Shown: positions 1,517 through 46,202 of the stretch, in pieces
How the letters are laid out: every line of letters begins with the position of its first letter
Position numbering within the stretch: the first letter of the stretch is position 1
Assembly (NCBI GenBank): GCA_019246335.1
Contig: JAFAQQ010000177.1
Location: 1-46,202 of the forward strand
DNA length: 46,202 bases
Reading direction: 5' to 3'
DNA from: Actinomycetota bacterium
GTDB lineage: Bacteria > Actinomycetota > Thermoleophilia > Solirubrobacterales > Thermoleophilaceae
Notes under the pieces: generated by a model
Told to the model about the DNA's origin: nothing
What the model saw: the letters and a program-made list of their open reading frames with translations, nothing else
The model's database searches: none
Made by a program: the position numbers and the translations under genes

Positions 1517-3520
1517 ATGAGCGACGCTGGCGGCGGCCGCGCAACCAGGCTCGAGGAGCGCGATCGGCCCTGGGTCATGCGCACGTACGCCGGGCATTCG
1601 ACCGCCCGCGAGTCAAACGCGCTCTATCGCAAGAACCTCGAGAAGGGCCAGACCGGCCTCTCGGTCGCTTTCGACCTGCCGACGCAGACGGGCTACGACC
1701 CCGACGACGAGCTCTCGCGGGGAGAGGTTGGCAAGGTCGGCGTCTCGATCGCCCACAAGGGCGACATGCACACGCTCCTCGACGGCATCCCGCTCGACGA
1801 GATGAACACGTCGATGACGATCAACGCCACGGCCGCGTGGCTGCTCGCGCTCTACATGACGGTGGCGGAGGAGAACGACGTGCCCGTCGAGCGGCTCCAG
1901 GGCACCACGCAGAACGACATCATCAAGGAGTTCCTCTCGCGCGGGACCTACGCGTTCCCGCCGGGGCCGTCGATGCGGCTGATCGCGGACATGATCGCGT
2001 TCACGGTCGACGCCGTCCCGAAGTGGAACCCGATCAACATCTGCTCGTATCACCTCCAGGAGGCGGGCGCCACCCCCGTACAGGAGATCGCCTACGCCCT
2101 ATCGACCGCCCAGGCCGTGCTGGACGCCGTTCGCCCGCAGGTCGACGACGAGACCTTCCCGCGGGTGTTCGGCCGTATGTCCTTCTTCGTGAACGCGGGC
2201 ATCCGGTTCATCGAGGAGCACGCGAAGCTGCGTGCGATGGGACAGCTCTGGCGCGAGCTGGGGCGTGAGCGGTACGGCGTCGACGACGAACGGTTCCTGC
2301 GCTTCCGGTACGGCGTCCAGGTCAACTCGCTCGGGCTGACTGAGTCCCAGCCCGAGAACAACGTGATACGGATCGTGCTCGAGGCGCTGGCCGTCGCGAT
2401 GGGACGCGACGCTCGCGCCCGCGCCATTCAGCTTCCCGCCTGGAACGAGGCGCTCGGGCTCCCGCGTCCGTGGGACCAGCAATGGTCGCTGCGGATCCAG
2501 CAGATCCTGGCGCTCGAGACTGACATCCTCGAGTACCCCGACATCTTCGAGGGCTCCAACGTGATGGAGGGCCTCGTCGCCGAGCTCGTCGAGGGCGCCC
2601 GCGAGGAGATGGCGGTGGTGGCCGAGCACGGCGGCGCGGTCGAGGCGGTCGACTACATGAAGACCCAGCTCGTGGAGTCGCACCGCGCGCGGCTCGCGAA
2701 GATCGAGAGCGGAGAGCAGACCGTGGTGGGCCAGAACGCGTTCACGACCACGGAGCCCTCGCCCCTCCAGCAGGGCGAGGACGGCGGCATCCTGACCGTC
2801 GACCCCAACGTCGAGCGCGACCAGATCGAGGCCGTGCGGCACTGGCGCGAGCAGCGCGACGAGCCGGCGGTGCGGGCGGCGCTCGACGAGCTTCGCGGCG
2901 CCGCCGAGGACGACGGCGTGAACGTCATGCCCGCGACGCTCGCCGCGGCGCGCGCCGGCGCGACGACCGGCGAGTGGGCCGGCACGCTGCGGGAGGTCTT
3001 CGGCGAATACCGCGCTCCGACCGGAGTGGACAGCGCCGCCGGCGCCGACGACGCAGCGCTCGAGGAGGTCCGCGAGAAGGTCGAGCGTGTATCGGAGGCG
3101 CTCGGCCGGCGCCTGAAGGTCCTGGTGGGCAAGCCCGGCCTCGACGGGCACTCGAACGGGGCCGAGCAGATCGCGCTGCGCGCCCGTGACGCCGGCATGG
3201 ACGTGGTGTACGAGGGCATCAGGCTGACGCCCTCGCGCATCGCCGCCACTGCGGTGCAGGAGGGCGTGCACGTGGTCGGGCTCTCGATCCTCTCGGGCTC
3301 CCACCGCGAGCTGATCCCGGAGGTGCTGCGGGAGCTCCGGGAGGCGGGCGCGGACGTGCCGGTGGTCGTCGGCGGCATCATCCCGGCCGCGGATGCCGAG
3401 TGGCTCCGGGAGGCCGGGGTCGCCCGCGTCTACACGCCCAAGGACTTCGAGCTGACGAAGAGCATCGACGACATCGTCGACCTCGTCGCCGAACGCCACG
3501 GCGCCGCCGCCGCGGCTTGA
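1517..3520 (+). CDS. ecm: Ethylmalonyl-CoA mutase (B12-dependent)
   Basis: A 667-residue, single-chain coenzyme-B12 mutase with an N-terminal substrate-binding barrel (to ~residue 510) and a C-terminal cobalamin domain with the DxHxxG signature as DGHSNG at 543-548. Methylmalonyl-CoA mutases carry DLATHRGYDSD and SVSMTMNG at the corresponding places. This protein has LPTQTGYDPDD, NTSMTINAT, LSRGTY, SQPENNV and PAWNEALGLPRPWDQQW, which I recognise from ethylmalonyl-CoA mutase (called MeaA in Streptomyces). Length also fits Ecm (~650-680) better than MCM (>700). Ecm converts (2R)-ethylmalonyl-CoA to (2S)-methylsuccinyl-CoA in the ethylmalonyl-CoA pathway of acetyl-CoA assimilation. It is translationally coupled to meaB downstream and starts without a leader. 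An older annotation would call it methylmalonyl-CoA mutase. Confidence 0.9.
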   Translation: MSDAGGGRATRLEERDRPWVMRTYAGHSTARESNALYRKNLEKGQTGLSVAFDLPTQTGYDPDDELSRGEVGKVGVSIAHKGDMHTLLDGIPLDEMNTSMTINATAAWLLALYMTVAEENDVPVERLQGTTQNDIIKEFLSRGTYAFPPGPSMRLIADMIAFTVDAVPKWNPINICSYHLQEAGATPVQEIAYALSTAQAVLDAVRPQVDDETFPRVFGRMSFFVNAGIRFIEEHAKLRAMGQLWRELGRERYGVDDERFLRFRYGVQVNSLGLTESQPENNVIRIVLEALAVAMGRDARARAIQLPAWNEALGLPRPWDQQWSLRIQQILALETDILEYPDIFEGSNVMEGLVAELVEGAREEMAVVAEHGGAVEAVDYMKTQLVESHRARLAKIESGEQTVVGQNAFTTTEPSPLQQGEDGGILTVDPNVERDQIEAVRHWREQRDEPAVRAALDELRGAAEDDGVNVMPATLAAARAGATTGEWAGTLREVFGEYRAPTGVDSAAGADDAALEEVREKVERVSEALGRRLKVLVGKPGLDGHSNGAEQIALRARDAGMDVVYEGIRLTPSRIAATAVQEGVHVVGLSILSGSHRELIPEVLRELREAGADVPVVVGGIIPAADAEWLREAGVARVYTPKDFELTKSIDDIVDLVAERHGAAAAA

Positions 3521-4509
3521 GGGACAGGCGGTCGGCCGCGGCGCGGACCGCGGTCGATGCGGCTGAGCTCGGCCGTCGCCTTCGGGAGGGCGACCGAACG
3601 GCCGCGCCCGCCGCGTTGAACGCAATCGAGGACCGCTCGCAGGCCGGGCGCGATCGGGCCCGGGCGCTTCTTCACGAGATCTCCCCCGCCGCGCTCGGCG
3701 GCGAGGCGCGGGCCCACCTGATCGGAGTCACGGGGCCGCCGGGCGCCGGGAAGTCGTCCCTCCTGTCGGCCCTCGTCGCCGCCTGGCGCGAGCGCGGTCG
3801 CTCTGTGGCGGTCCTGGCCGTCGACCCCTCGTCTCGGCGCTCCGGCGGCGCGCTCCTGGGAGACCGCGCGCGAATCGAGCACGACCCGCGCGACGACGGC
3901 GTCCTCATTCGCTCGACCGCCGCCGGGTCGCGGCTCGGCGGTCTCGCCCCGCCCACGCGCGAGGCCGTCCAGGTGCTGGCCCCGGCCTACGAGGTCGTGG
4001 TCGTCGAGACCGTCGGCGTCGGGCAGTCCGAGACCGACGTGGCCGAGGTCTGCGACACCGTGGCTGTCGTGGTCCAGCCCGGCTCCGGCGACGTGCTCCA
4101 GTTCCTGAAGGCGGGCATCATGGAGATCCCCGACGTGCTCGTGATCACCAAGGGAGACCTCGGCGACGTCGCCCGCCGTGCCCGGCGCGACCTCGCGTCG
4201 GCCCTGCGGGCGCTGGGCGCGCGGGAGACCCCGGTGGTGACGGTGTCTTCGATCCCTCCTCCAACCGGGATCGACGAGCTCGTCCAAGCCCTCGACGCCC
4301 ACCGCGGCGTGGTCGATGTGAAGGCCGCGCGAACGTCCGCGCGGCGCCTGGCCGCGCTCGCCGAGTTTGCGACCGAGCACGGCGAGAGCGGACTGCGGGC
4401 GCTCGGCGGCCGCCGGGAGGCGCTGCTCCTGCTCGAAGCGCAGGACGCCGGGCTGGAGGTGCCGAGGCTGGTCGAAGCGCTGGAGCGAGCGGCCCGGCAG
4501 GACGGCTAG
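3517..4509 (+). CDS. meaB: MeaB/ArgK-type G-protein chaperone of the B12 mutase
   Basis: A 330-residue P-loop GTPase of the MeaB family. Walker A is GPPGAGKS at ~73-80, the ETVGVGQSE switch element at ~164-172, and the base-recognition motif reads TKGD at ~211-214 in place of the commoner NKxD. An N-terminal helical segment and a C-terminal helical dimerisation arm are present, as in MeaB. The protein gates adenosylcobalamin loading and protects acyl-CoA mutases from inactivation. It starts at TTG 3517, overlapping the ecm stop by 4 bp (TTGA), and no better ATG/GTG exists before the conserved region. The overlap makes Ecm its obvious client. Confidence 0.92.
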   Translation: MRDRRSAAARTAVDAAELGRRLREGDRTAAPAALNAIEDRSQAGRDRARALLHEISPAALGGEARAHLIGVTGPPGAGKSSLLSALVAAWRERGRSVAVLAVDPSSRRSGGALLGDRARIEHDPRDDGVLIRSTAAGSRLGGLAPPTREAVQVLAPAYEVVVVETVGVGQSETDVAEVCDTVAVVVQPGSGDVLQFLKAGIMEIPDVLVITKGDLGDVARRARRDLASALRALGARETPVVTVSSIPPPTGIDELVQALDAHRGVVDVKAARTSARRLAALAEFATEHGESGLRALGGRREALLLLEAQDAGLEVPRLVEALERAARQDG

Positions 4510-7758: not shown

Positions 7759-9306
7759 CTAGCGGACCGCCTGGATGATCTCCTCGGACAGGGCGGGGAA
7801 CTTCGCCAGGTACTCGGCCCGCTCCGACTTGAGGCGCTCGACGATCTTGCCGTACTCGTCCGAACGGCCCTGAGACTCATACACCTCGCGCGGGCGAAGG
7901 ACGCCCGCGTCGGACTCGTCGATGCCAGGGACGCGCACGGCGACCTCGTAGCCGAAGTCCGGGTCGCGCTCCCATTCGATCGTGCCCTCGGCGATCGACT
8001 TCACGATCGCCGAGCTGTGCGGGATCCGGACCTTGACGGAGCGCTCGTCCTCGTCCGTCCCCGCGACCCGGCCGGTATTCATCAGGTAGACGTCCAGCTG
8101 GTGGTCGGCCATCAGCTCGAGGAAGCGGTTCCCCTGGTTGTCGTGGTCGTCGGGGAAGAACGGGTTCGTGCCCGGGACGCGAAGGAACTTCCCGGCCTCC
8201 TCGGCGCCACCGGCGCTCGTGCCCTGCGTCTCGCCGAGCATGAAGTAGGCGGCAGCCTGCTCCGGCGTGAGACGGGCGACGGCGGGGATGATGTTCTCAT
8301 TCCGGTTGAGTATCAGCAGGAAGTCCGCGGACTGGAGCTCGCGCGCATCGGCGGCCTCGATCGCCGAGAACGAGAAGGTGGCGCGGCCGTTCTGCGTGTA
8401 GCTCGTATCGAAGAAGTCGAGCTCGCCCTCCCCATCCTGGGAGACGTTCTCGAGGTAGGCCTCCGGCCGCGTCACCGCGCCGTAAATCGTCGGCTCGTCC
8501 TCCGCGGAGAGCGCGAAAGTCTTGGCGAAGCAGCCCGCCTCGGTCGCATAGACCTTGCCGCCGGGCATCATGGCCACGAAGTCGTCCTGCACCGGCAGCG
8601 ACCCGTTCTGCCGGGTGAAGGTCGTCGTGGTCTTGCCGGTGCCGGACAGGCCGACGATGAGGCCGACCTTGTCGCCCGAGTCCGTCGGGATGACCTTGCA
8701 GCCGGCGTGGAGCGGAAGCCCGCCGCGGTCGTAGACGAGCTTGTTCCACATGCGAAGCCCGCCCTTCTTCGACTCGCCGAAGTAGTCGGAGTTGCACACG
8801 CGCGTGACGCCGCGCTCGCAGTCGACCGAGATCACCCGGTCGTTCGGATAGCCCTCAACCGCGAAGTTCGGCGTGTAGATGACCGTGAGCTCGGGCTCGA
8901 AGCTGTCGGGATCGTCGACGTCGAAGTAGAGCTGCCGCTGCATGCCGGCGATGTTCGCGTTCGACTCCTCGATGTAGAGGCGTGCCGCCGTGCGGAACTC
9001 GGGGTCGTCCCCGATGTAGCCGTCGACCACGAGCATGTCGCGCCCCGCGATGTAGTCGTCCTGGAGCTCGGCGATCCGATCGCCCTCCTCGCGCGAGATC
9101 GCCTGATGCGAGCACGCGTCCGGGTCGTCGACGACCAGGTACGTCGAGGCCTTGGACCGTGCCAGCACCTGCGTCTGCACGTTCAGGTTCCCGTACCGGG
9201 TCTCGCGGGCGTTCGGCATGCTCGCGGCGAGCTCCTTGAGCTCCTCGGACGAGGGATTCGCGCGGACGGATTTCGCGTCCGGCAGCGGGGTCATCTGCTT
9301 CGCCAT
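7759..9306 (-). CDS. pckA: Phosphoenolpyruvate carboxykinase (ATP)
   Basis: A 515-residue ATP-type PEP carboxykinase, close to the usual ~520-540. Recognisable elements: YFGESKKGG at ~175-183, the kinase P-loop GLSGTGKT at 219-226, QDDFVAMMPGGKVYATEAGCFAKT with metal and nucleotide contacts, and LNRNENIIPAVARLTPEQAAAYF. It makes PEP from oxaloacetate plus ATP, the first committed step of gluconeogenesis from C4 acids. In this window it would receive the C4 output of an ethylmalonyl-CoA route. A GAGGAG sits ~14 nt before the ATG, rather far for a Shine-Dalgarno. GTP-type enzymes are the rule in many actinobacteria, so the ATP type is mildly notable. Confidence 0.95.
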   Translation of the reverse strand: MAKQMTPLPDAKSVRANPSSEELKELAASMPNARETRYGNLNVQTQVLARSKASTYLVVDDPDACSHQAISREEGDRIAELQDDYIAGRDMLVVDGYIGDDPEFRTAARLYIEESNANIAGMQRQLYFDVDDPDSFEPELTVIYTPNFAVEGYPNDRVISVDCERGVTRVCNSDYFGESKKGGLRMWNKLVYDRGGLPLHAGCKVIPTDSGDKVGLIVGLSGTGKTTTTFTRQNGSLPVQDDFVAMMPGGKVYATEAGCFAKTFALSAEDEPTIYGAVTRPEAYLENVSQDGEGELDFFDTSYTQNGRATFSFSAIEAADARELQSADFLLILNRNENIIPAVARLTPEQAAAYFMLGETQGTSAGGAEEAGKFLRVPGTNPFFPDDHDNQGNRFLELMADHQLDVYLMNTGRVAGTDEDERSVKVRIPHSSAIVKSIAEGTIEWERDPDFGYEVAVRVPGIDESDAGVLRPREVYESQGRSDEYGKIVERLKSERAEYLAKFPALSEEIIQAVR

Positions 9307-28304: not shown

Positions 28305-28892
28305 TCAACCGTCGGGATTGTGGGCCGGAGGAGCGTCCGCGGAGGTCGCGGCCGCCGGTTCGAGCTCCCGCAGCGTGTCGGGGCGCCGCGGCACCAGGAC
28401 CGCCCGCTTGAAGGTGGCCACGAGCGTGCCGTCCTGCTTGTAGGCGTCGGTCTTGACCTTGACCACGCCGCGGTCCGGCTTCGAGCGCGAAGGGGTGACC
28501 TCCAGCACCTCGCTCTCGACGAACAGAGTGTCTCCGTGGAAGACCGGGGCCGGGTGCTTCAGCTCCTCGGTCGCGAGGTTCGCTATCGCCTTGCCGGACA
28601 CGTCGCTCACCGACATGCCGAGCATGATCGAGTACACGAGCGGCCCGACCACGACGTTTCGGCCCTGCTGCGACTCGCGGGCGTACAGGTCGTTGATGTG
28701 GAGCGGGTGGTGGTTCATCGTGAGGAGGCAGAAGAGGTGGTCGTCGGCCTCGGTGATCGTCTTCGCCGGCCAGTGCTTGTAGACGGCGCCGACCTCGAAC
28801 TCCTCGAGGTACCGGCCGTAGGCGTGCGCCCCCGAGGCCTCCCGGGAGGCCTGGTCGGTCAGGAGCTCGTGTGGCTGGTGGTCGTCGCCCAT
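28305..28892 (-). CDS. MaoC-family hot-dog acyl-CoA hydratase (candidate mesaconyl/itaconyl-CoA hydratase)
   Basis: A 195-residue single hot-dog protein. The hydratase-2 active-site region reads [21 protein letters not shown] (broken as TITEAD 45-50, then HHPLH 61-65), giving the Asp/His pair. [15 protein letters not shown] and [17 protein letters not shown] complete the fold. Such proteins hydrate enoyl-CoAs. Beside a malyl-CoA-lyase-like gene, the likeliest substrates are branched C5-dicarboxyl-CoAs (mesaconyl-CoA in the ethylmalonyl-CoA route, or itaconyl-CoA). The well-known proteobacterial mesaconyl-CoA hydratase is about twice this length with two hot-dog units, so the assignment is tentative. 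Divergent from the lyase operon. Confidence 0.8.
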
Positions 28893-29075: not shown

Positions 29076-30137
29076 ATGCGAAATCCGCGCGACTTCCTCA
29101 AGCCCCTCGCCATCGGCGCGCCAGAGCCGGCGCGCGACGTGCCCTTCAGGCCGTCGCGGATGATCCACTTCCTCGACTTCTCGAACGAGAAGATGGTCGC
29201 GAAGGTGCCGGAGATCGCGCCGACGGTCGACATCCTGCTCGGCAACCTCGAGGATGCCATCCCCGTCGACCGCAAGGAGGCCGCCCGCGAGGGCCTGATC
29301 CGCGTGGGCAGGGAGATGGAGCTCGGAGAGACCCAGCTCTGGACGCGCGTGAACTCCCTCGAGTCCCCGTGGGTGCTGGACGACCTCACGCAGGTCGTGA
29401 CGGAGATCGGCCATCGCCTCGACGTCGTGATGGTTCCCAAGGTCGAGGGGCCCTGGGACATCCACTACGTCGACCGTCTGCTGGCGCAGCTCGAGGCGAA
29501 GGCGGAGCTCCGCAAGCCGCTGCTCGTCCACGCGATCCTGGAGACCTCGCTCGGCGTCGTGAACCTCGAGGAGATCGCGACCGCCAGCCCGCGGATGCAG
29601 GGGATGAGCTTCGGGCCGGCTGACCTCGCGGCCTTCCGGCGGATGAAGACGACCCGGGTTGGCGGCGGCCATCCCGCCTACCGTGTTGTCGAGGACCCCG
29701 ATCCCGACGACCCCGACGCCCGCCGGGCGACCGCGCAGCAGGACCCCTGGCACTACTCAATCGCCCGCATGGTGGACGCGTGCACGTCCGCCGGGATCCT
29801 GCCGTTCTACGGCCCCTACGGCGACATCAAGGACGTGCAGGGCTGCGAGACGCAGTTCCGCGCCGCATTCCTCCTCGGCTGCGTCGGCGCCTGGTCGCTC
29901 CACCCCGTCCAGATCGAGATCGCCAAGAAGGTGTTCAGCCCGCCCGCCGAGGAGGTGCGGTTCGCGAAGAAGGTGCTCGAGGCGATCCCCGACGGCCGCG
30001 GAGTGCACATGATCGACGGCAAGATGCAGGACGACGCCACCTGGAAGCAATCGAAGGTGATGGTCGACCTCGCCCAGATGCTCGCGAAGAAGGACCCCGA
30101 GCTGGCGGACGCCTACGAGCTCCCCTCGTCACGCTAG
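29076..30137 (+). CDS. mcl: Malyl-CoA lyase-like CoA-ester lyase (HpcH/CitE superfamily)
   Basis: A 353-residue TIM-barrel lyase. Active-site elements: NLEDAIP (57-63), RVN (91-93) as the acyl-CoA arginine, ETSLG (156-160) and FGPADL (179-184). The C-terminal half has [14 protein letters not shown] and [16 protein letters not shown], which I recognise from malyl-CoA lyases of the serine cycle and ethylmalonyl-CoA pathway. CitE-type lyases are shorter (~270-300). The reaction is (S)-malyl-CoA to acetyl-CoA plus glyoxylate, or methylmalyl-CoA to propionyl-CoA plus glyoxylate; citramalyl-CoA is an alternative. It is the first gene of an operon with an acyl-CoA ligase that starts directly after its stop. 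Confidence 0.85.
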
Positions 30138-31424
30138 ATGCGCTTCTACGAGTACGAGTCCCGTCGGATCCTCGCCCGAGAGGGGATCCCCCTCTCCAAG
30201 CACGGCTTCGCCCGCAGCGCCGAGGAGGCCAAGCGAGTCGCGGCCGAGATCGAGGGCCCGGTCGTGATCAAGTCGCAGGTCCTGTCCGGCGGCCGCATGA
30301 AGGCCGGTGGCGTGAAGTTCGCGGATACCCCGGAGGAGGCCGAGGCACACGCGCGGGAGATCCTCCAGCTCGAGATCGGCGGGCACATGCCGCGCGGCGT
30401 GCTCGTCGACGCGCGCGCGGCCATCAAGCAGGAGTACTACGCCGGCGTGATCTACGACGGCGTGCGCAAGCGACCGACGTTCGTCTTCAGCGACATGGGC
30501 GGGATCGACATCGAGGAGGTGGCCGACACCAACCCGGAGCGCATCGGCCGCGGCCACTTCTCCACGATCCTGCCGCACATGGACTTCCGCGCGAAGGACG
30601 TGATCGCCTCGATCGGGATCACCGGATCGGAGCTCAACCGGCTCACCCCGATCCTCTCGAAGCTCGCCCGGCTCTTCCTGAAGTACGACATGACGCTCGC
30701 GGAGATCAACCCCCTCGCTCAGCTCGAGGACGGGACCTTCGTGGCCGTCGACGCCCACATGGACTTGGAGAACGAGGCCCGGCCACGGCAGAGAGAGCTC
30801 CTGGAGGAGCTTGGGGTGGGAGACGAGGAGACACGCGAAGCCCGCGAGCCGACCGAGTTCGAGATCAGGGGCGAGCAGATCGACGCGGTCGACCACCGCG
30901 GCGTGGCCGGGAACGTCACCGAGTTCGACGGGAACCTCGGGCTCGTCATCGGAGCGGGCGGCGGCTCGCTCACGCTTTTCGACGCGGTCCGCCGCCACGG
31001 CGGCAAGCCCGCCAACTACTGCGAGATCGGTGGAAACCCGAGCGTCTCGAAGGCGAAGAACCTCACCAAGCTCGTGCTCGAGAAGCCGGGAGTGGACAAG
31101 ATCGCGGTGATGATGAGCATCGTCTCGAACACACGGGTCGACATCGTCGCCCGCGGGGTGATCAAGGCGTGCCTCGAGCTGGGCCACGACCCCGCCGAGA
31201 AGATCGCCGTCTTCCGCATCCCCGGCGCCTGGGAGGAGGAGGGGTTCAAGATCCTCGAGAAGTACGGCGTCGAGTACTACGACCGCAGCGTCTCGATGCA
31301 CGAGGCGGCGCGCCGTGCCGTGGAGAAGGTCGGGGCCGCGTCGGACGGAGCCGGGCCGTCGGTGGACGAGCACCCGCCCGCCACCGTGGACGCCGGCACC
31401 AGCGGCGAGGGCGAGGCGCCGTGA
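30138..31424 (+). CDS. Acyl-CoA ligase, ATP-grasp beta-type subunit (ATP-citrate-lyase/citryl-CoA-synthetase-like)
   Basis: A 428-residue ATP-grasp subunit related to succinyl-CoA synthetase beta. The ATP-grasp half has VVIKSQVLSGGRMKAGG (42-58) and the metal-site EINP (189-192). The CoA-ligase half reads GAGGGSL (272-278) and ANYCEIGGNPS (292-302). SucC normally has GAGLAM and ANFLDVGG there. The sequence here recalls ATP-citrate lyase (ANY-E-x-G-x-PS). Length exceeds SucC (~385), with an inserted segment ~212-262 and a disordered acidic tail. Substrate inferred from the adjoining lyase: malate, citramalate or citrate. Overlaps the alpha-subunit start by 4 bp. Confidence 0.78.
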   Translation: MRFYEYESRRILAREGIPLSKHGFARSAEEAKRVAAEIEGPVVIKSQVLSGGRMKAGGVKFADTPEEAEAHAREILQLEIGGHMPRGVLVDARAAIKQEYYAGVIYDGVRKRPTFVFSDMGGIDIEEVADTNPERIGRGHFSTILPHMDFRAKDVIASIGITGSELNRLTPILSKLARLFLKYDMTLAEINPLAQLEDGTFVAVDAHMDLENEARPRQRELLEELGVGDEETREAREPTEFEIRGEQIDAVDHRGVAGNVTEFDGNLGLVIGAGGGSLTLFDAVRRHGGKPANYCEIGGNPSVSKAKNLTKLVLEKPGVDKIAVMMSIVSNTRVDIVARGVIKACLELGHDPAEKIAVFRIPGAWEEEGFKILEKYGVEYYDRSVSMHEAARRAVEKVGAASDGAGPSVDEHPPATVDAGTSGEGEAP

Positions 31425-32353
31425 GCGATCGTGAGCACCACCACCTGATCGACGAGGACACGACCTTCATCGTCCAAGGGATCACCGGGCGCGAGGCGGT
31501 CAACCTGACGAGGGAGTGCCTCGACTACGGCTCGAAGATCGTCGGTGGCGTCACTCCGGGCCGCCGCGGCCGTGACGTCCACGGGGTTCCCGTGTTCGAC
31601 TCGGTCGCGCAGCTCGTCGAGGAGGTCGGCGAGGTCCCGGACGGATCGGTGGTGACCGTCCCCCCCGCCTTCACCCGGGACGCGGTCTTCGAAGCGATCG
31701 AGGCCGGCGTAGCGCTGATCGTGATCGTGACCGAGCGGATCCCGCGGCAGGACGTCGCGCAGATGGTCGAGCTGGCGACGCTCCGCGGCGCCCGGATCAT
31801 CGGGCCGAACTGCCTCGGCATCATCCGCCCCGGCGTCGCCAAGATGGGTGGGATCGGTGGCCCCGCGCGCGACGCGCGCAAGGCCTACGAGCCGGGCTCG
31901 ATCGGCGTGATGTCCCGGAGCGGCGGCATGACCACCGAGATCTCGTCGACCCTGAGCGCCGCTGGGCTCGGGGTCTCCACCGCGATCTCGATCGGCGGGG
32001 ACGCGATCATCGGCTCCACCTACGCGGAGCTGATGTCGCTGTTCGAGGCCGACGAGCAGACCGAGGGAATCGTCATCTACACGGAGCCCGGCGGGCGGAT
32101 GGAGGCGCAGCTCGCGGAATGGGTAGTCGAGAACGAGTCCCGGCTGCCAATCGTGGCCTTCATGGCCGGCCGCTTCATGGACGAGATGCCGGGGATGAGC
32201 TTCGGCCACGCGGGCACGATCGTCGAGGGCAGGGCCGATACGGCAGCCGAGAAGATCAACCGTCTCCAATCCGCCGGCATCACGGTGGCCGAGGAGATCT
32301 CGGAGATCCCCGACCTGATGCGCGAGAAGCTCGGACAGAAGGCCACGGCGTAG
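31421..32353 (+). CDS. Acyl-CoA ligase, alpha-type (phospho-histidine) subunit
   Basis: A 310-residue SucD-like subunit. CoA-binding VQGITGREA (18-26), VVGGVTPG-type segment (40-47), GPNCLGI (128-134), and the phospho-histidine His263 in SFGHAGTIVEG. The phosphate/substrate loop reads SRSGGM (165-170), as in ATP-citrate lyase, rather than SRSGTL of SucD and of malate-CoA ligase MtkB. This again separates it from house-keeping SucCD. GTG 31421 overlaps the beta-subunit stop, and its TAG overlaps the ferredoxin GTG by one base (TAGTG), so lyase, ligase and ferredoxin are one translational unit. Confidence 0.8.
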   Translation: MSDREHHHLIDEDTTFIVQGITGREAVNLTRECLDYGSKIVGGVTPGRRGRDVHGVPVFDSVAQLVEEVGEVPDGSVVTVPPAFTRDAVFEAIEAGVALIVIVTERIPRQDVAQMVELATLRGARIIGPNCLGIIRPGVAKMGGIGGPARDARKAYEPGSIGVMSRSGGMTTEISSTLSAAGLGVSTAISIGGDAIIGSTYAELMSLFEADEQTEGIVIYTEPGGRMEAQLAEWVVENESRLPIVAFMAGRFMDEMPGMSFGHAGTIVEGRADTAAEKINRLQSAGITVAEEISEIPDLMREKLGQKATA

Positions 32354-32586
32354 TGCCCGGGACCTTCATCGACGTCGAGCTCGACGACTCGGTCCGCGGC
32401 GACCGGGAGCTTGCCGCGAAGCTCGAGGAGGCATGCCCGGTCGACATCTACGCGAGCGGGGAAGGCGTCGAGGTCGTTGAGGAGAACCTCGACGAATGCG
32501 TGCTCTGCGAGCTTTGCATCAAGGCGGCGCCGCCCGGCAAGCTGCGCGTTCGCAAGCTGTACGACGGGACGGCGCTAGAGGCCTAG
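32353..32586 (+). CDS. FixX-like small ferredoxin, single 4Fe-4S cluster
   Basis: A 77-residue protein with four cysteines: Cys28 in EACPVDIY, and Cys49, 52 and 55 in ECVLCELC. The order CP first and C-x2-C-x2-C later, with Y after the first motif, matches FixX-type ferredoxin-like proteins that serve electron-transfer-flavoprotein:quinone oxidoreductases. One 4Fe-4S cluster is predicted. No FixABC or ETF genes are near; the gene is tightly joined to the CoA ligase instead. Its electron partner is unknown. GTG start at 32353, first base shared with the previous stop. Confidence 0.78.
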   Translation: MPGTFIDVELDDSVRGDRELAAKLEEACPVDIYASGEGVEVVEENLDECVLCELCIKAAPPGKLRVRKLYDGTALEA

Positions 32587-41778: not shown

Positions 41779-42141
41779 CTACCGCGCGCCGGCGCGCGCC
41801 AGCTGGCGCTCGATCACGTTCCCCACCAGCTTCACGACCGCGGCCTCGCCCGACACGTTCACGTGCCCGCGCCGGTACGCATCGAGCCAGTGCCGGAGGG
41901 ACCCCGCGCGCGCGAGCTCGTTGAAGTGCGAGCGCGGGATCGAGATCTGGATGCGGGCGTCCGCGGCTGGATCCCGGGCGATCCGCGGCCCGGGCAGTTC
42001 TACGCGCCAGACCGGAGCGTCCGCTCCGCGGGCCCGCAGCTCCAGCTTGACCACCGCCTTGAGCTGTCGAAGCGCGGGCACCTCCTGGCCGAACCGCTCC
42101 ACCGCCTGCTCGATCAGCGCTCGCGTGTCGCCCGCCGACAT
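41779..42141 (-). CDS. Small SCP2-like domain protein
   Basis: A 120-residue soluble protein. The C-terminal half (RIQISIPRSHFNELARAGSL, DAYRRGHVNVSGEAAVVKLVG) has the pattern of the SCP2 sterol-carrier fold: strand, helix with a small-residue turn, then G-x-V-x-V-S-G. SCP2 domains bind lipids or acyl-CoAs. The match is partial and the N-terminus is generic, so the call is moderate. It lies 44 bp downstream of the Nudix-MFS gene on the same strand, probably the same transcript. Confidence 0.55.
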   Translation of the reverse strand: MSAGDTRALIEQAVERFGQEVPALRQLKAVVKLELRARGADAPVWRVELPGPRIARDPAADARIQISIPRSHFNELARAGSLRHWLDAYRRGHVNVSGEAAVVKLVGNVIERQLARAGAR

Positions 42142-45676: not shown

Positions 45677-46202
45677 TCAGATCTTGTGGCGCTCGAGGAG
45701 CTTCTTGCCGATGACCATGCGCTGGATCTCCGACGTTCCCTCCCCGATCAGGAGAAGCGGCGCGTCGCGATAGAGCCGCTCGATCTCGTACTCCTTCGAG
45801 TAGCCGTATCCGCCGTGGATGCGAAAGGCGTCCTCCACGACCTCCTTGCCCGTCTCGGACGCGAAGAGCTTCGCCATCCCCGCCTCGAGGTCCGAGCGCT
45901 CGCCCGCATCCTTCAACCGGGCTGCGCGAAGCGTGAGCAGCCGGGCGGCGTCGACCTTCGTGGCCATGTCGGCGAGCTTGAACTGGATGGCCTGGTGCTG
46001 GGAGATCGGCTTGCCGAACGTGCGCCGCTCCTGCGAGTAGCGAAGCGCCAGCTCCAGCGCGCGCTGCGCGATCCCGACGCCGCGCGCCGCCACGTTCACT
46101 CGCCCCACCTCGAGCGCGTCCATCATCTGGCGGAAGCCCTGGCCGAGGCCCTCGTCTCCACCAAGGATGCGGTTCGCAGGGCAGCGATAGTCCTCGTAGA
46201 CG
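45677..46202 (-). CDS. Acyl-CoA dehydrogenase, C-terminal part (start outside window)
   Basis: About 174 residues of the C-terminal half of an acyl-CoA dehydrogenase, open to the window edge. Visible: GLGQGFRQMMDALEVGRVNVAARGVG, RRTFGKPISQHQAIQFKLADMAT (FAD/CoA helix bundle), GGYGYSKEYEIERLYRDA and LIGEGTSEIQRMVIGK. The Glu of GEGTSEIQ is the usual catalytic base position. Flavoenzyme that oxidises acyl-CoA to enoyl-CoA. Whether it is the (2S)-methylsuccinyl-CoA dehydrogenase of the ethylmalonyl-CoA route or another family member cannot be told from this half. Confidence 0.93.
   Translation of the reverse strand, partial: VYEDYRCPANRILGGDEGLGQGFRQMMDALEVGRVNVAARGVGIAQRALELALRYSQERRTFGKPISQHQAIQFKLADMATKVDAARLLTLRAARLKDAGERSDLEAGMAKLFASETGKEVVEDAFRIHGGYGYSKEYEIERLYRDAPLLLIGEGTSEIQRMVIGKKLLERHKI

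What the first reader, a model, noticed from the sequence alone, without database searches (positions are those of the whole stretch)
29076..32586. Lyase + ATP-citrate-lyase-like CoA ligase + ferredoxin operon: a possible ATP-coupled C-C splitting or joining module
Four genes (malyl-CoA-lyase-like, two ligase subunits, FixX-like ferredoxin) are joined with zero to 4-bp spacing. The ligase differs from SucCD: SRSGGM in place of SRSGTL, and GAGGGSL/ANYCEIGGNPS where SucC has other residues. These resemble ATP-citrate lyase and citryl-CoA synthetase as I recall them. A ligase plus a lyase would together cleave a hydroxy acid with ATP (malate to acetyl-CoA + glyoxylate). Run in reverse, they would conserve ATP when malyl-CoA is turned to malate, replacing the thioesterase of the usual ethylmalonyl-CoA route. 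The fused-in ferredoxin is unexplained.
Basis: partly seen in the sequence, partly recalled or inferred. Interest (0 to 1): 0.85.

Follow-up and report, generated by a model that had tools for sequence, protein, structure and literature searches.

The report
Ferredoxin-linked ligase paired with malyl-CoA lyase
Soil bacteria of the order Solirubrobacterales carry a distinct ATP-forming CoA ligase, always encoded with a small ferredoxin and usually next to malyl-CoA lyase inside their acetate-assimilation genes, and it probably recovers ATP at a step that other bacteria waste by hydrolysis.

Summary
The four-gene operon is real: malyl-CoA lyase, two ligase subunits and ferredoxin, with spacings of 0, -4 and -1 bp. 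The lyase is of the Chloroflexus MCL type and keeps every catalytic residue. The ligase is neither SucCD nor the known malate-CoA ligase MtkAB. In both subunit trees it forms a separate clade, whereas MtkAB nests inside SucCD. Its acid-binding domain carries motifs of citryl-CoA synthetase (DHRG, GGGS, GGNP, NTRxD) but lacks an arginine found in ATP-citrate lyase and citryl-CoA synthetase. The ligase-ligase-ferredoxin trio was intact in every related locus long enough to show it. Outside the order the same trio sits beside non-orthologous lyases: CitE-like enzymes, and once a citryl-CoA-lyase-family enzyme next to methylaspartate-pathway genes. In Solirubrobacterales it lies among ethylmalonyl-CoA-pathway genes. 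Those genomes almost always lack isocitrate lyase, often lack malate synthase, and show no thioesterase of the Rhodobacter type. Best reading: malyl-CoA + ADP + Pi -> L-malate + CoA + ATP, replacing the hydrolytic last step of acetate assimilation. Substrate, direction and the ferredoxin's role are inferred. The window's own genome also has malate synthase, and two relatives without Ccr keep the operon. New variant of a known kind.

The parts
29076..30137 (+). [quoted passage not shown]
   Evidence: Best PDB matches 4l7z (510 bits) and 6kin (504 bits), next 197 bits. His31, Asn57, Glu59, Asp60, Arg91, Glu156, Asp183 and Asp319 match all eight MCL-C active-site residues, including the MCL-C-specific Asn58 and His32.
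30138..31424 (+). ligB: ATP-grasp (beta) subunit of an ADP-forming acid-CoA ligase, 428 aa
   Evidence: ATP-grasp_2 170 bits, weak ATP-citrate-lyase citrate-binding domain hit 8e-5; below NCBIfam cut-offs for SucC and for malate-CoA ligase; motifs shared with citryl-CoA synthetase large subunit; own clade.
31421..32353 (+). ligA: CoA-binding/phosphohistidine (alpha) subunit, 310 aa
   Evidence: CoA_binding and Ligase_CoA; invariant H263 in the FGHAG loop and SRSGGM; own clade 100/100 against SucD and MtkB.
32353..32586 (+). fdx: small ferredoxin, 77 aa, predicted single [4Fe-4S] cluster
   Evidence: Four cysteines (CP and CxxCxxC) kept in all 68 complete orthologues checked. A distant homologue in L165 is a full 2[4Fe-4S] ferredoxin. 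AlphaFold pLDDT 94.8; closest folds are ferredoxins and PsaC, weakly.
28305..28892 (-). MaoC-type hydratase, candidate mesaconyl-CoA hydratase, divergent from mcl
   Evidence: MaoC_dehydratas and MC_hydratase above cut-off; conserved beside mcl in most relatives.
1517..3520 (+). Acyl-CoA mutase, candidate ethylmalonyl-CoA mutase, 667 aa
   Evidence: MM_CoA_mutase 441 bits plus B12-binding domain; below the methylmalonyl-CoA mutase equivalog cut-off; same position beside MBL and ClpS genes in G034 and G047, which also have Ccr nearby.
3616..4509 (+). MeaB-type GTPase, mutase chaperone
   Evidence: TIGR00750 214 bits, just under its cut-off.
7762..9306 (-). PEP carboxykinase (ATP-type family)
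   Evidence: NF006821 415 bits, over its cut-off of 369.
41782..42141 (-). Small SCP2-like protein of the type found between the MaoC and acyl-CoA dehydrogenase genes in relatives (named by eye; no Pfam hit)
45677..46201 (-). C-terminal part of an acyl-CoA dehydrogenase cut by the contig end, candidate methylsuccinyl-CoA dehydrogenase
   Evidence: Acyl-CoA dehydrogenase families. The full-length relative L218:15474-16679 has Msd 6es9 as its second PDB match, 299 bits, after FadE3, 407 bits.

Best explanation
The operon encodes an ADP-forming hydroxy-acid--CoA ligase (ligB-ligA) working in series with malyl-CoA lyase, as the last step of acetate assimilation by the ethylmalonyl-CoA (EMC) pathway. 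[quoted passage not shown] It then condenses glyoxylate with acetyl-CoA to malyl-CoA. The ligase converts malyl-CoA + ADP + Pi to L-malate + CoA + ATP through a phosphohistidine (H263 of LigA) and the beta-subunit ATP-grasp site, conserving energy that the malyl-CoA thioesterase (Mcl2) or malate synthase would lose. PEP carboxykinase, encoded nearby, then draws C4 acid into gluconeogenesis. The reaction is reversible, so it could also split malate with ATP. The ferredoxin is translationally coupled to LigA nearly everywhere and most likely binds the ligase as an Fe-S accessory subunit. Shown by computation: gene identities, operon, conservation, phylogeny, catalytic residues, genomic context. 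Inferred: malate as substrate, direction, ATP gain, ferredoxin role.
For: Lyase is an MCL-C-type enzyme with all active-site residues. Ligase clade is separate from SucCD and MtkAB, 100/100 for alpha and 100/100 for beta once the long CCS row is left out; a separate canonical SucC/SucD exists. Acid-binding domain shares DHRG, GGGS, GGNP and NTRxD with citryl-CoA synthetase, absent from SucC and MtkA. Context: Ccr in 43 of 46 relatives, isocitrate lyase in 2 of 46, malate synthase in 15 of 46, Mcl-type lyase in 45 of 46. Ligase present in 25 genomes that lack malate synthase. No surveyed CitE-like protein has the Glu that marks malyl-CoA thioesterases. In 14 genomes ligA and ccr share a contig, median 27 kb apart. 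G047 holds acetate symporter, acetyl-CoA synthetase, trio, PEPCK, Mcl, acyl-CoA dehydrogenase, MaoC, mutase and Ccr within 36 kb. Window itself carries mutase, MeaB, PEPCK, MaoC and an acyl-CoA dehydrogenase end. Bin G515 (Dehalococcoidia label) has mutase, mesaconyl-CoA hydratase-like, methylsuccinyl-CoA dehydrogenase, a non-orthologous CitE-like lyase and the trio together, and Ccr; G516 also has Ccr.
Against: The window's genome and, with it, 12 of 15 ligase-bearing genomes of its family also have malate synthase, so the step is not unique there. G005 (one contig) and G019 keep the whole operon without Ccr, so the module can serve outside the EMC pathway. Four genomes lack the ligase and malate synthase: G046, G052 and G056 have Ccr and Mcl plus a second MCL-like gene, and G037 has Ccr but no Mcl. 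Distant relatives sit in non-EMC contexts, so the family's substrate may vary. Much of the co-occurrence is shared ancestry within one order. No assay. Ferredoxin role untested.
Confidence: 0.6

Rival explanations
1. Same enzymes, opposite direction: the ligase activates malate with ATP and Mcl splits malyl-CoA to acetyl-CoA and glyoxylate, as in the serine cycle, supplying glyoxylate/glycine or acetyl-CoA.
For: MtkAB and Mcl do this in methylotrophs and are neighbours there. The window's family has malate synthase as well, which would make the forward ligase redundant. G005 and G019 keep the operon without Ccr.
Against: Neighbourhood is acetate uptake and activation, EMC pathway and PEPCK. 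Serine-cycle genes were not searched for.
Confidence: 0.2
2. The ligase activates citramalate or beta-methylmalate rather than malate, feeding a citramalyl-CoA or beta-methylmalyl-CoA lyase.
For: In L165 the trio is followed by a citryl-CoA-lyase-family gene and lies beside glutamate mutase and methylaspartate ammonia-lyase, a pathway that leads to citramalate. Chloroflexus MCL also cleaves citramalyl-CoA (PMC3832036). The family lacks the ACLY Arg379-equivalent, arguing against citrate.
Against: L165 alpha and beta are only 47-49% identical to the window's. No methylaspartate or itaconate genes were seen near the Solirubrobacterales operon.
Confidence: 0.13
3. A duplicated succinyl-CoA synthetase that still uses succinate, placed in the operon because propionyl-CoA from the EMC pathway ends as succinyl-CoA.
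For: Overall scores are higher against SCS than CCS: alpha 268 vs 210 bits, beta 235 vs 187 bits. NCBIfam's best models are SucC/SucD, though below cut-off.
Against: Canonical SucC/SucD is present separately. The acid-binding motifs are replaced by CCS-type ones in every member. The trio associates with C-C lyases in unrelated lineages.
Confidence: 0.07

Closest known systems
Malate-CoA ligase MtkAB with malyl-CoA lyase (serine cycle of methylotrophs)
   Same: ADP-forming two-subunit ligase in a cluster with a malyl-CoA lyase; would interconvert malate and malyl-CoA.
   Different: MtkAB nests inside SucCD in both trees, while this ligase lies outside; 33-35% (beta) and 40-44% (alpha) identity; no ferredoxin gene is annotated in the Mtk loci read; different lyase subgroup.
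Citryl-CoA synthetase CcsAB with citryl-CoA lyase (Hydrogenobacter, reverse TCA cycle)
   Same: Ligase and separate lyase splitting a hydroxy acid with ATP; shared DHRG, GGGS, GGNP and NTRxD motifs in the beta subunit.
   Different: Overall similarity lower than to SCS; Arg379-equivalent replaced by Ile; the lyase is a CitE-type TIM barrel, not a citrate-synthase fold (except in distant L165).
Malyl-CoA lyase + (3S)-malyl-CoA thioesterase (Mcl1/Mcl2) of the ethylmalonyl-CoA pathway
   Same: Same pathway position: release of malate from malyl-CoA made by Mcl.
   Different: Ligase instead of hydrolase; no Glu-type thioesterase paralogue found in the order.
Chloroflexus aurantiacus malyl-CoA lyase (MCL-C)
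   Same: Closest solved relative of the lyase; all active-site residues kept.
   Different: In Chloroflexus malate is activated by a CoA-transferase in the 3-hydroxypropionate bicycle (own knowledge), not by a ligase operon.

Membership tests
Malyl-CoA lyase, MCL-C subgroup | Asn at MCL-C position 58 and His32, plus Glu60, Asp61, Arg92, Glu157, Asp184, Asp318 | tested here: met
   All eight present; residues listed in PMC3832036.
Malyl-CoA lyase, MCL-C subgroup | Cleavage of malyl-CoA | not testable with these tools
   Needs enzyme assay.
ADP-forming acid-CoA ligase (SCS/ACD superfamily) | ATP-grasp beta subunit and CoA-binding alpha subunit with phosphohistidine loop GHA | tested here: met
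   Pfam domains above cut-off; H263 invariant.
Succinyl-CoA synthetase SucCD | Branching within SucC/SucD and passing the curated SucC/SucD score | tested here: not met
   259 vs 370 and 285 vs 336 bits; outside the SucCD clade.
Malate-CoA ligase MtkAB | Branching with MtkA/MtkB and passing NF010647 | tested here: not met
   184 vs 604 bits; MtkAB nest inside SucCD, this family outside.
Malate-CoA ligase MtkAB | ATP-dependent malyl-CoA formation | not testable with these tools
   Needs assay.
Citryl-CoA synthetase CcsAB | Shared acid-domain motifs and grouping with CcsA in the tree | tested here: inconclusive
   Motifs shared; CCS falls on the family's side of the SucC split with 97/93 support, but on a very long branch.
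Citryl-CoA synthetase CcsAB | Citrate-contacting Arg379 (ACLY numbering) | tested here: not met
   Ile in the family, Arg in CCS, Leu in SucC. Pocket placement of Arg378/Arg379 from PMC9504748; direct citrate contact from own knowledge.
Ferredoxin [4Fe-4S] | Four cysteine ligands for at least one cluster | tested here: met
   CP and CxxCxxC in 68 of 68; these are the ligands of cluster II of the 2[4Fe-4S] homologue in L165.
Ethylmalonyl-CoA pathway | Crotonyl-CoA carboxylase/reductase in the same genome | tested here: met
   514 bits on contig C50 of the window's genome, cut-off 379; 43 of 46 relatives.

The most novel reading that the evidence does not exclude
An undescribed family of ferredoxin-bearing hydroxy-acid CoA ligases forms a portable ATP-coupled C-C cleavage/condensation cassette that has paired independently with at least three kinds of C-C lyase (MCL-C, CitE-like and citryl-CoA-lyase type). 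In Solirubrobacterales it gives an energy-conserving version of the ethylmalonyl-CoA pathway, with the Fe-S subunit gating the ligase by redox state or oxygen.
Probability: 0.3. Interest if true: 0.8.

Novelty: new variant of a known kind. Interest (0 to 1): 0.62.

Why it matters
If right, a large and poorly studied order of soil bacteria assimilates acetate by an ethylmalonyl-CoA pathway that gains one ATP where the textbook version loses a thioester. It would be a second, unrelated malate-CoA ligase type, useful for synthetic malyl-CoA pathways in which the malate-activating step can be limiting (low in vivo malate thiokinase activity: PMC2948502). A CoA ligase with an obligate ferredoxin partner would also be new to the succinyl-CoA synthetase superfamily as far as I know; none was found in the papers searched.

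Tried and rejected
Duplicated SucCD and MtkAB orthologue: rejected by trees and motifs. Citrate as substrate: disfavoured by loss of the Arg379-equivalent and absence of a citryl-CoA-lyase-type gene near the operon in the order. FixX orthologue: the ferredoxin is a reduced 2[4Fe-4S] type; L163 shows an intermediate that keeps extra cysteines. A tempting idea, that ligase-lacking genomes carry an Mcl2 thioesterase instead, failed: the second MCL-like gene in G046, G052, G056 and G060 has Asp, not Glu, at the marking position, and by plasmid matches resembles CoA ester lyases, including those in serine-cycle clusters. Structure of LigB (pLDDT 82.5, pTM 0.61) matches SCS first and CCS at rank 14; too loose in domain arrangement to decide. 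Paper searches for malyl-CoA with Thermoleophilia, Solirubrobacter or citryl-CoA synthetase found nothing on this system (titles and start of abstracts only). The CCS small-subunit sequence could not be printed, so it is missing from the alpha tree.
Full report
Observation. The four genes are present as described, at 29076-30137, 30138-31424, 31421-32353 and 32353-32586 on the + strand, with spacings of 0, -4 and -1 bp. Pfam gives HpcH/HpaI for the first, ATP-grasp_2 for the second and CoA_binding plus Ligase_CoA for the third; the fourth passes no model. A MaoC-type hydratase at 28305-28892 lies divergent to the lyase gene. The ferredoxin is not fused; it overlaps the alpha gene by one base.

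Where it is. The contig belongs to a 2.5-Mb genome, 93.65% complete. Its close relatives in named collections are Thermoleophilaceae and Solirubrobacterales MAGs. A separate canonical sucC lies at the end of contig C20, and relatives have canonical SucD at about 40-43% identity to LigA besides the LigA orthologue at 70-93%.

Conservation. In 38 orthologous loci read from relatives, ligB, ligA and fdx are always together, most often with overlapping or nearly overlapping genes; mcl and MaoC are usually upstream, sometimes with PEP carboxykinase in between. The same holds in 80 named loci wherever the contig is long enough. In a class-wide draw of 120 genomes, 22 have the ligase at E <= 1e-80, all in the order except two of one genus at 55% identity. 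A phylum-wide draw adds one genus at 48-49%.

The lyase. Its best solved matches are Chloroflexus MCL (4l7z, 510 bits) and 6kin (504 bits), far ahead of the Rhodobacter type, 189 bits. All eight active-site residues named by Zarzycki and Kerfeld (PMC3832036) are kept, including Asn58, which they found only in the MCL-C group.

The ligase. Both subunits score below NCBIfam cut-offs for SucC, SucD and malate-CoA ligase. Trees of both subunits put the family, two Chloroflexi-labelled members and two distant groups in one clade apart from SucCD: alpha 100/100, beta 97/94 with the long CCS row and 100/100 without it. MtkAB, fetched from four alphaproteobacterial plasmids, three of them with a lyase gene close by, nests inside SucCD. 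The beta acid-binding domain shares DHRG..G, GGGS/GGAS, IGGNP and NTRxD with the citryl-CoA synthetase large subunit; SucC, MtkA and aldehyde-dehydrogenase-linked ligases have none of these. Yet overall scores remain higher against SCS than CCS, so 'CCS-like' applies to the pocket, not the whole protein. The position of ACLY Arg379 is Arg in CCS, Ile in this family and Leu in SucC. That Arg378/Arg379 line the citrate/inhibitor pocket is from PMC9504748; that Arg379 contacts citrate is own knowledge.

The ferredoxin. All 68 complete orthologues keep four cysteines, CP and CxxCxxC. In the distant locus L165 the same gene is a full 2[4Fe-4S] ferredoxin, and in L163 an intermediate. From the known ligand pattern of such ferredoxins, the four that remain are exactly those of cluster II. 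One working cluster is therefore likely. Its tight coupling to ligA even where the lyase differs suggests a partner of the ligase rather than of the lyase; this is inference.

Pathway context. Among 46 relatives at least 88% complete: Ccr in 43, isocitrate lyase in 2, malate synthase in 15, an Mcl match in 45. Among 44 genomes whose ligase status is known, 25 have the ligase and no malate synthase, 14 have both (12 of them in the window's family), and 5 lack the ligase (G053 counted as ligase-bearing from a ligB fragment at a contig end). LigA and Ccr share a contig in 14 genomes, 15-65 kb apart; in the single-contig genomes G034 and G047 the chance of such proximity is about 1.5% and 1.0%. 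In G047 one 36-kb stretch holds an acetate-type symporter, acetyl-CoA synthetase, the trio, GTP-type PEPCK, Mcl, an acyl-CoA dehydrogenase, MaoC, a B12 mutase and Ccr. The window itself carries the mutase, MeaB, PEPCK and part of an acyl-CoA dehydrogenase. In the class draw, ligase and Ccr co-occur in 18 genomes, ligase alone in 4, Ccr alone in 6, neither in 92; this is inflated by shared ancestry.

Independent contexts. In G515 (record titled Dehalococcoidia) the trio follows a mutase, a full-length mesaconyl-CoA-hydratase-like protein, a dehydrogenase whose only strong solved matches are methylsuccinyl-CoA dehydrogenases, and a CitE-like lyase only about 30% identical to the window's; G515 and G516 both have Ccr. 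In G064 the trio is followed by another CitE-like lyase and preceded by a TRAP transporter. In G188 it is followed by a gene passing citryl-CoA-lyase models and lies beside methylaspartate mutase and methylaspartate ammonia-lyase. These last two groups have no Ccr over the cut-off. Three kinds of lyase next to one ligase type argue that the ligase makes or consumes the lyase's CoA thioester, and that its acid may differ between lineages.

Mechanism proposed. In organisms with the EMC pathway, glyoxylate and acetyl-CoA are joined by Mcl and malate must be released. Rhodobacter and Methylobacterium hydrolyse malyl-CoA with Mcl2 (PMC2948502). Thioesterases of that group carry Glu in place of the catalytic Asp (PMC3832036); none of 19 CitE-like homologues inspected, 17 of them from the order, does. 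The ligase is the natural candidate for the step, forming ATP. This fits best in families that lack malate synthase. In the window's own family both exist, and in G005 and G019 the operon persists without Ccr, so the reverse direction (malate to glyoxylate and acetyl-CoA) remains a serious rival.

Verdict. The module is real, conserved and distinct. What is new is a ligase lineage, its ferredoxin partner and its likely place in the EMC pathway; what it resembles (malate-CoA ligase plus Mcl) is known. New variant of a known kind, confidence 0.6 in the malyl-CoA-to-malate reading.

Noticed in passing
L165:4973-12998 (G188, also G211 and G319): Trio followed by a citryl-CoA-lyase-family gene, with methylaspartate mutase, its GlmL accessory protein and methylaspartate ammonia-lyase nearby (read in G188): a possible ATP-dependent citramalate-splitting branch of glutamate degradation.
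   Followed up: partly
L186:11492-12430, L187:5971-6909, L188:10649-11563, L189:421-1344: A second MCL-like gene occurs in the four ligase-lacking, Mcl-bearing genomes (G056, G052, G060, G046), within about 6 kb of mcl in three of them; it keeps Asp, so it is not a thioesterase by the published criterion.
   Followed up: partly
window:7762-9306: The window has an ATP-type PEP carboxykinase near the operon, whereas several relatives have a GTP-type one between mcl and ligB or beside them.
   Followed up: no
window:32591-33772: An ATP-grasp protein gene starts 5 bp after the ferredoxin stop; seen in the same place only in the closest relative (L035/L078), so probably not part of the module. It is followed by a polysaccharide flippase.
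   Followed up: partly
L043 (G005) and L045 (G019): Full mcl-ligB-ligA-fdx operon in genomes with malate synthase but no Ccr.
   Followed up: partly
L119, L134, L117: Contigs labelled Bifidobacterium breve and Chlamydiae carry Solirubrobacterales-type operons; probably mislabelled or misbinned MAG contigs.
   Followed up: no
G037: Ccr present but no Mcl, ligase, isocitrate lyase or malate synthase detected in a 99% complete genome.
   Followed up: no
L152:7606-8004: A RidA-family (L-PSP) gene sits between the CitE-like lyase and ligB in the Dehalococcoidia-labelled bin.
   Followed up: no
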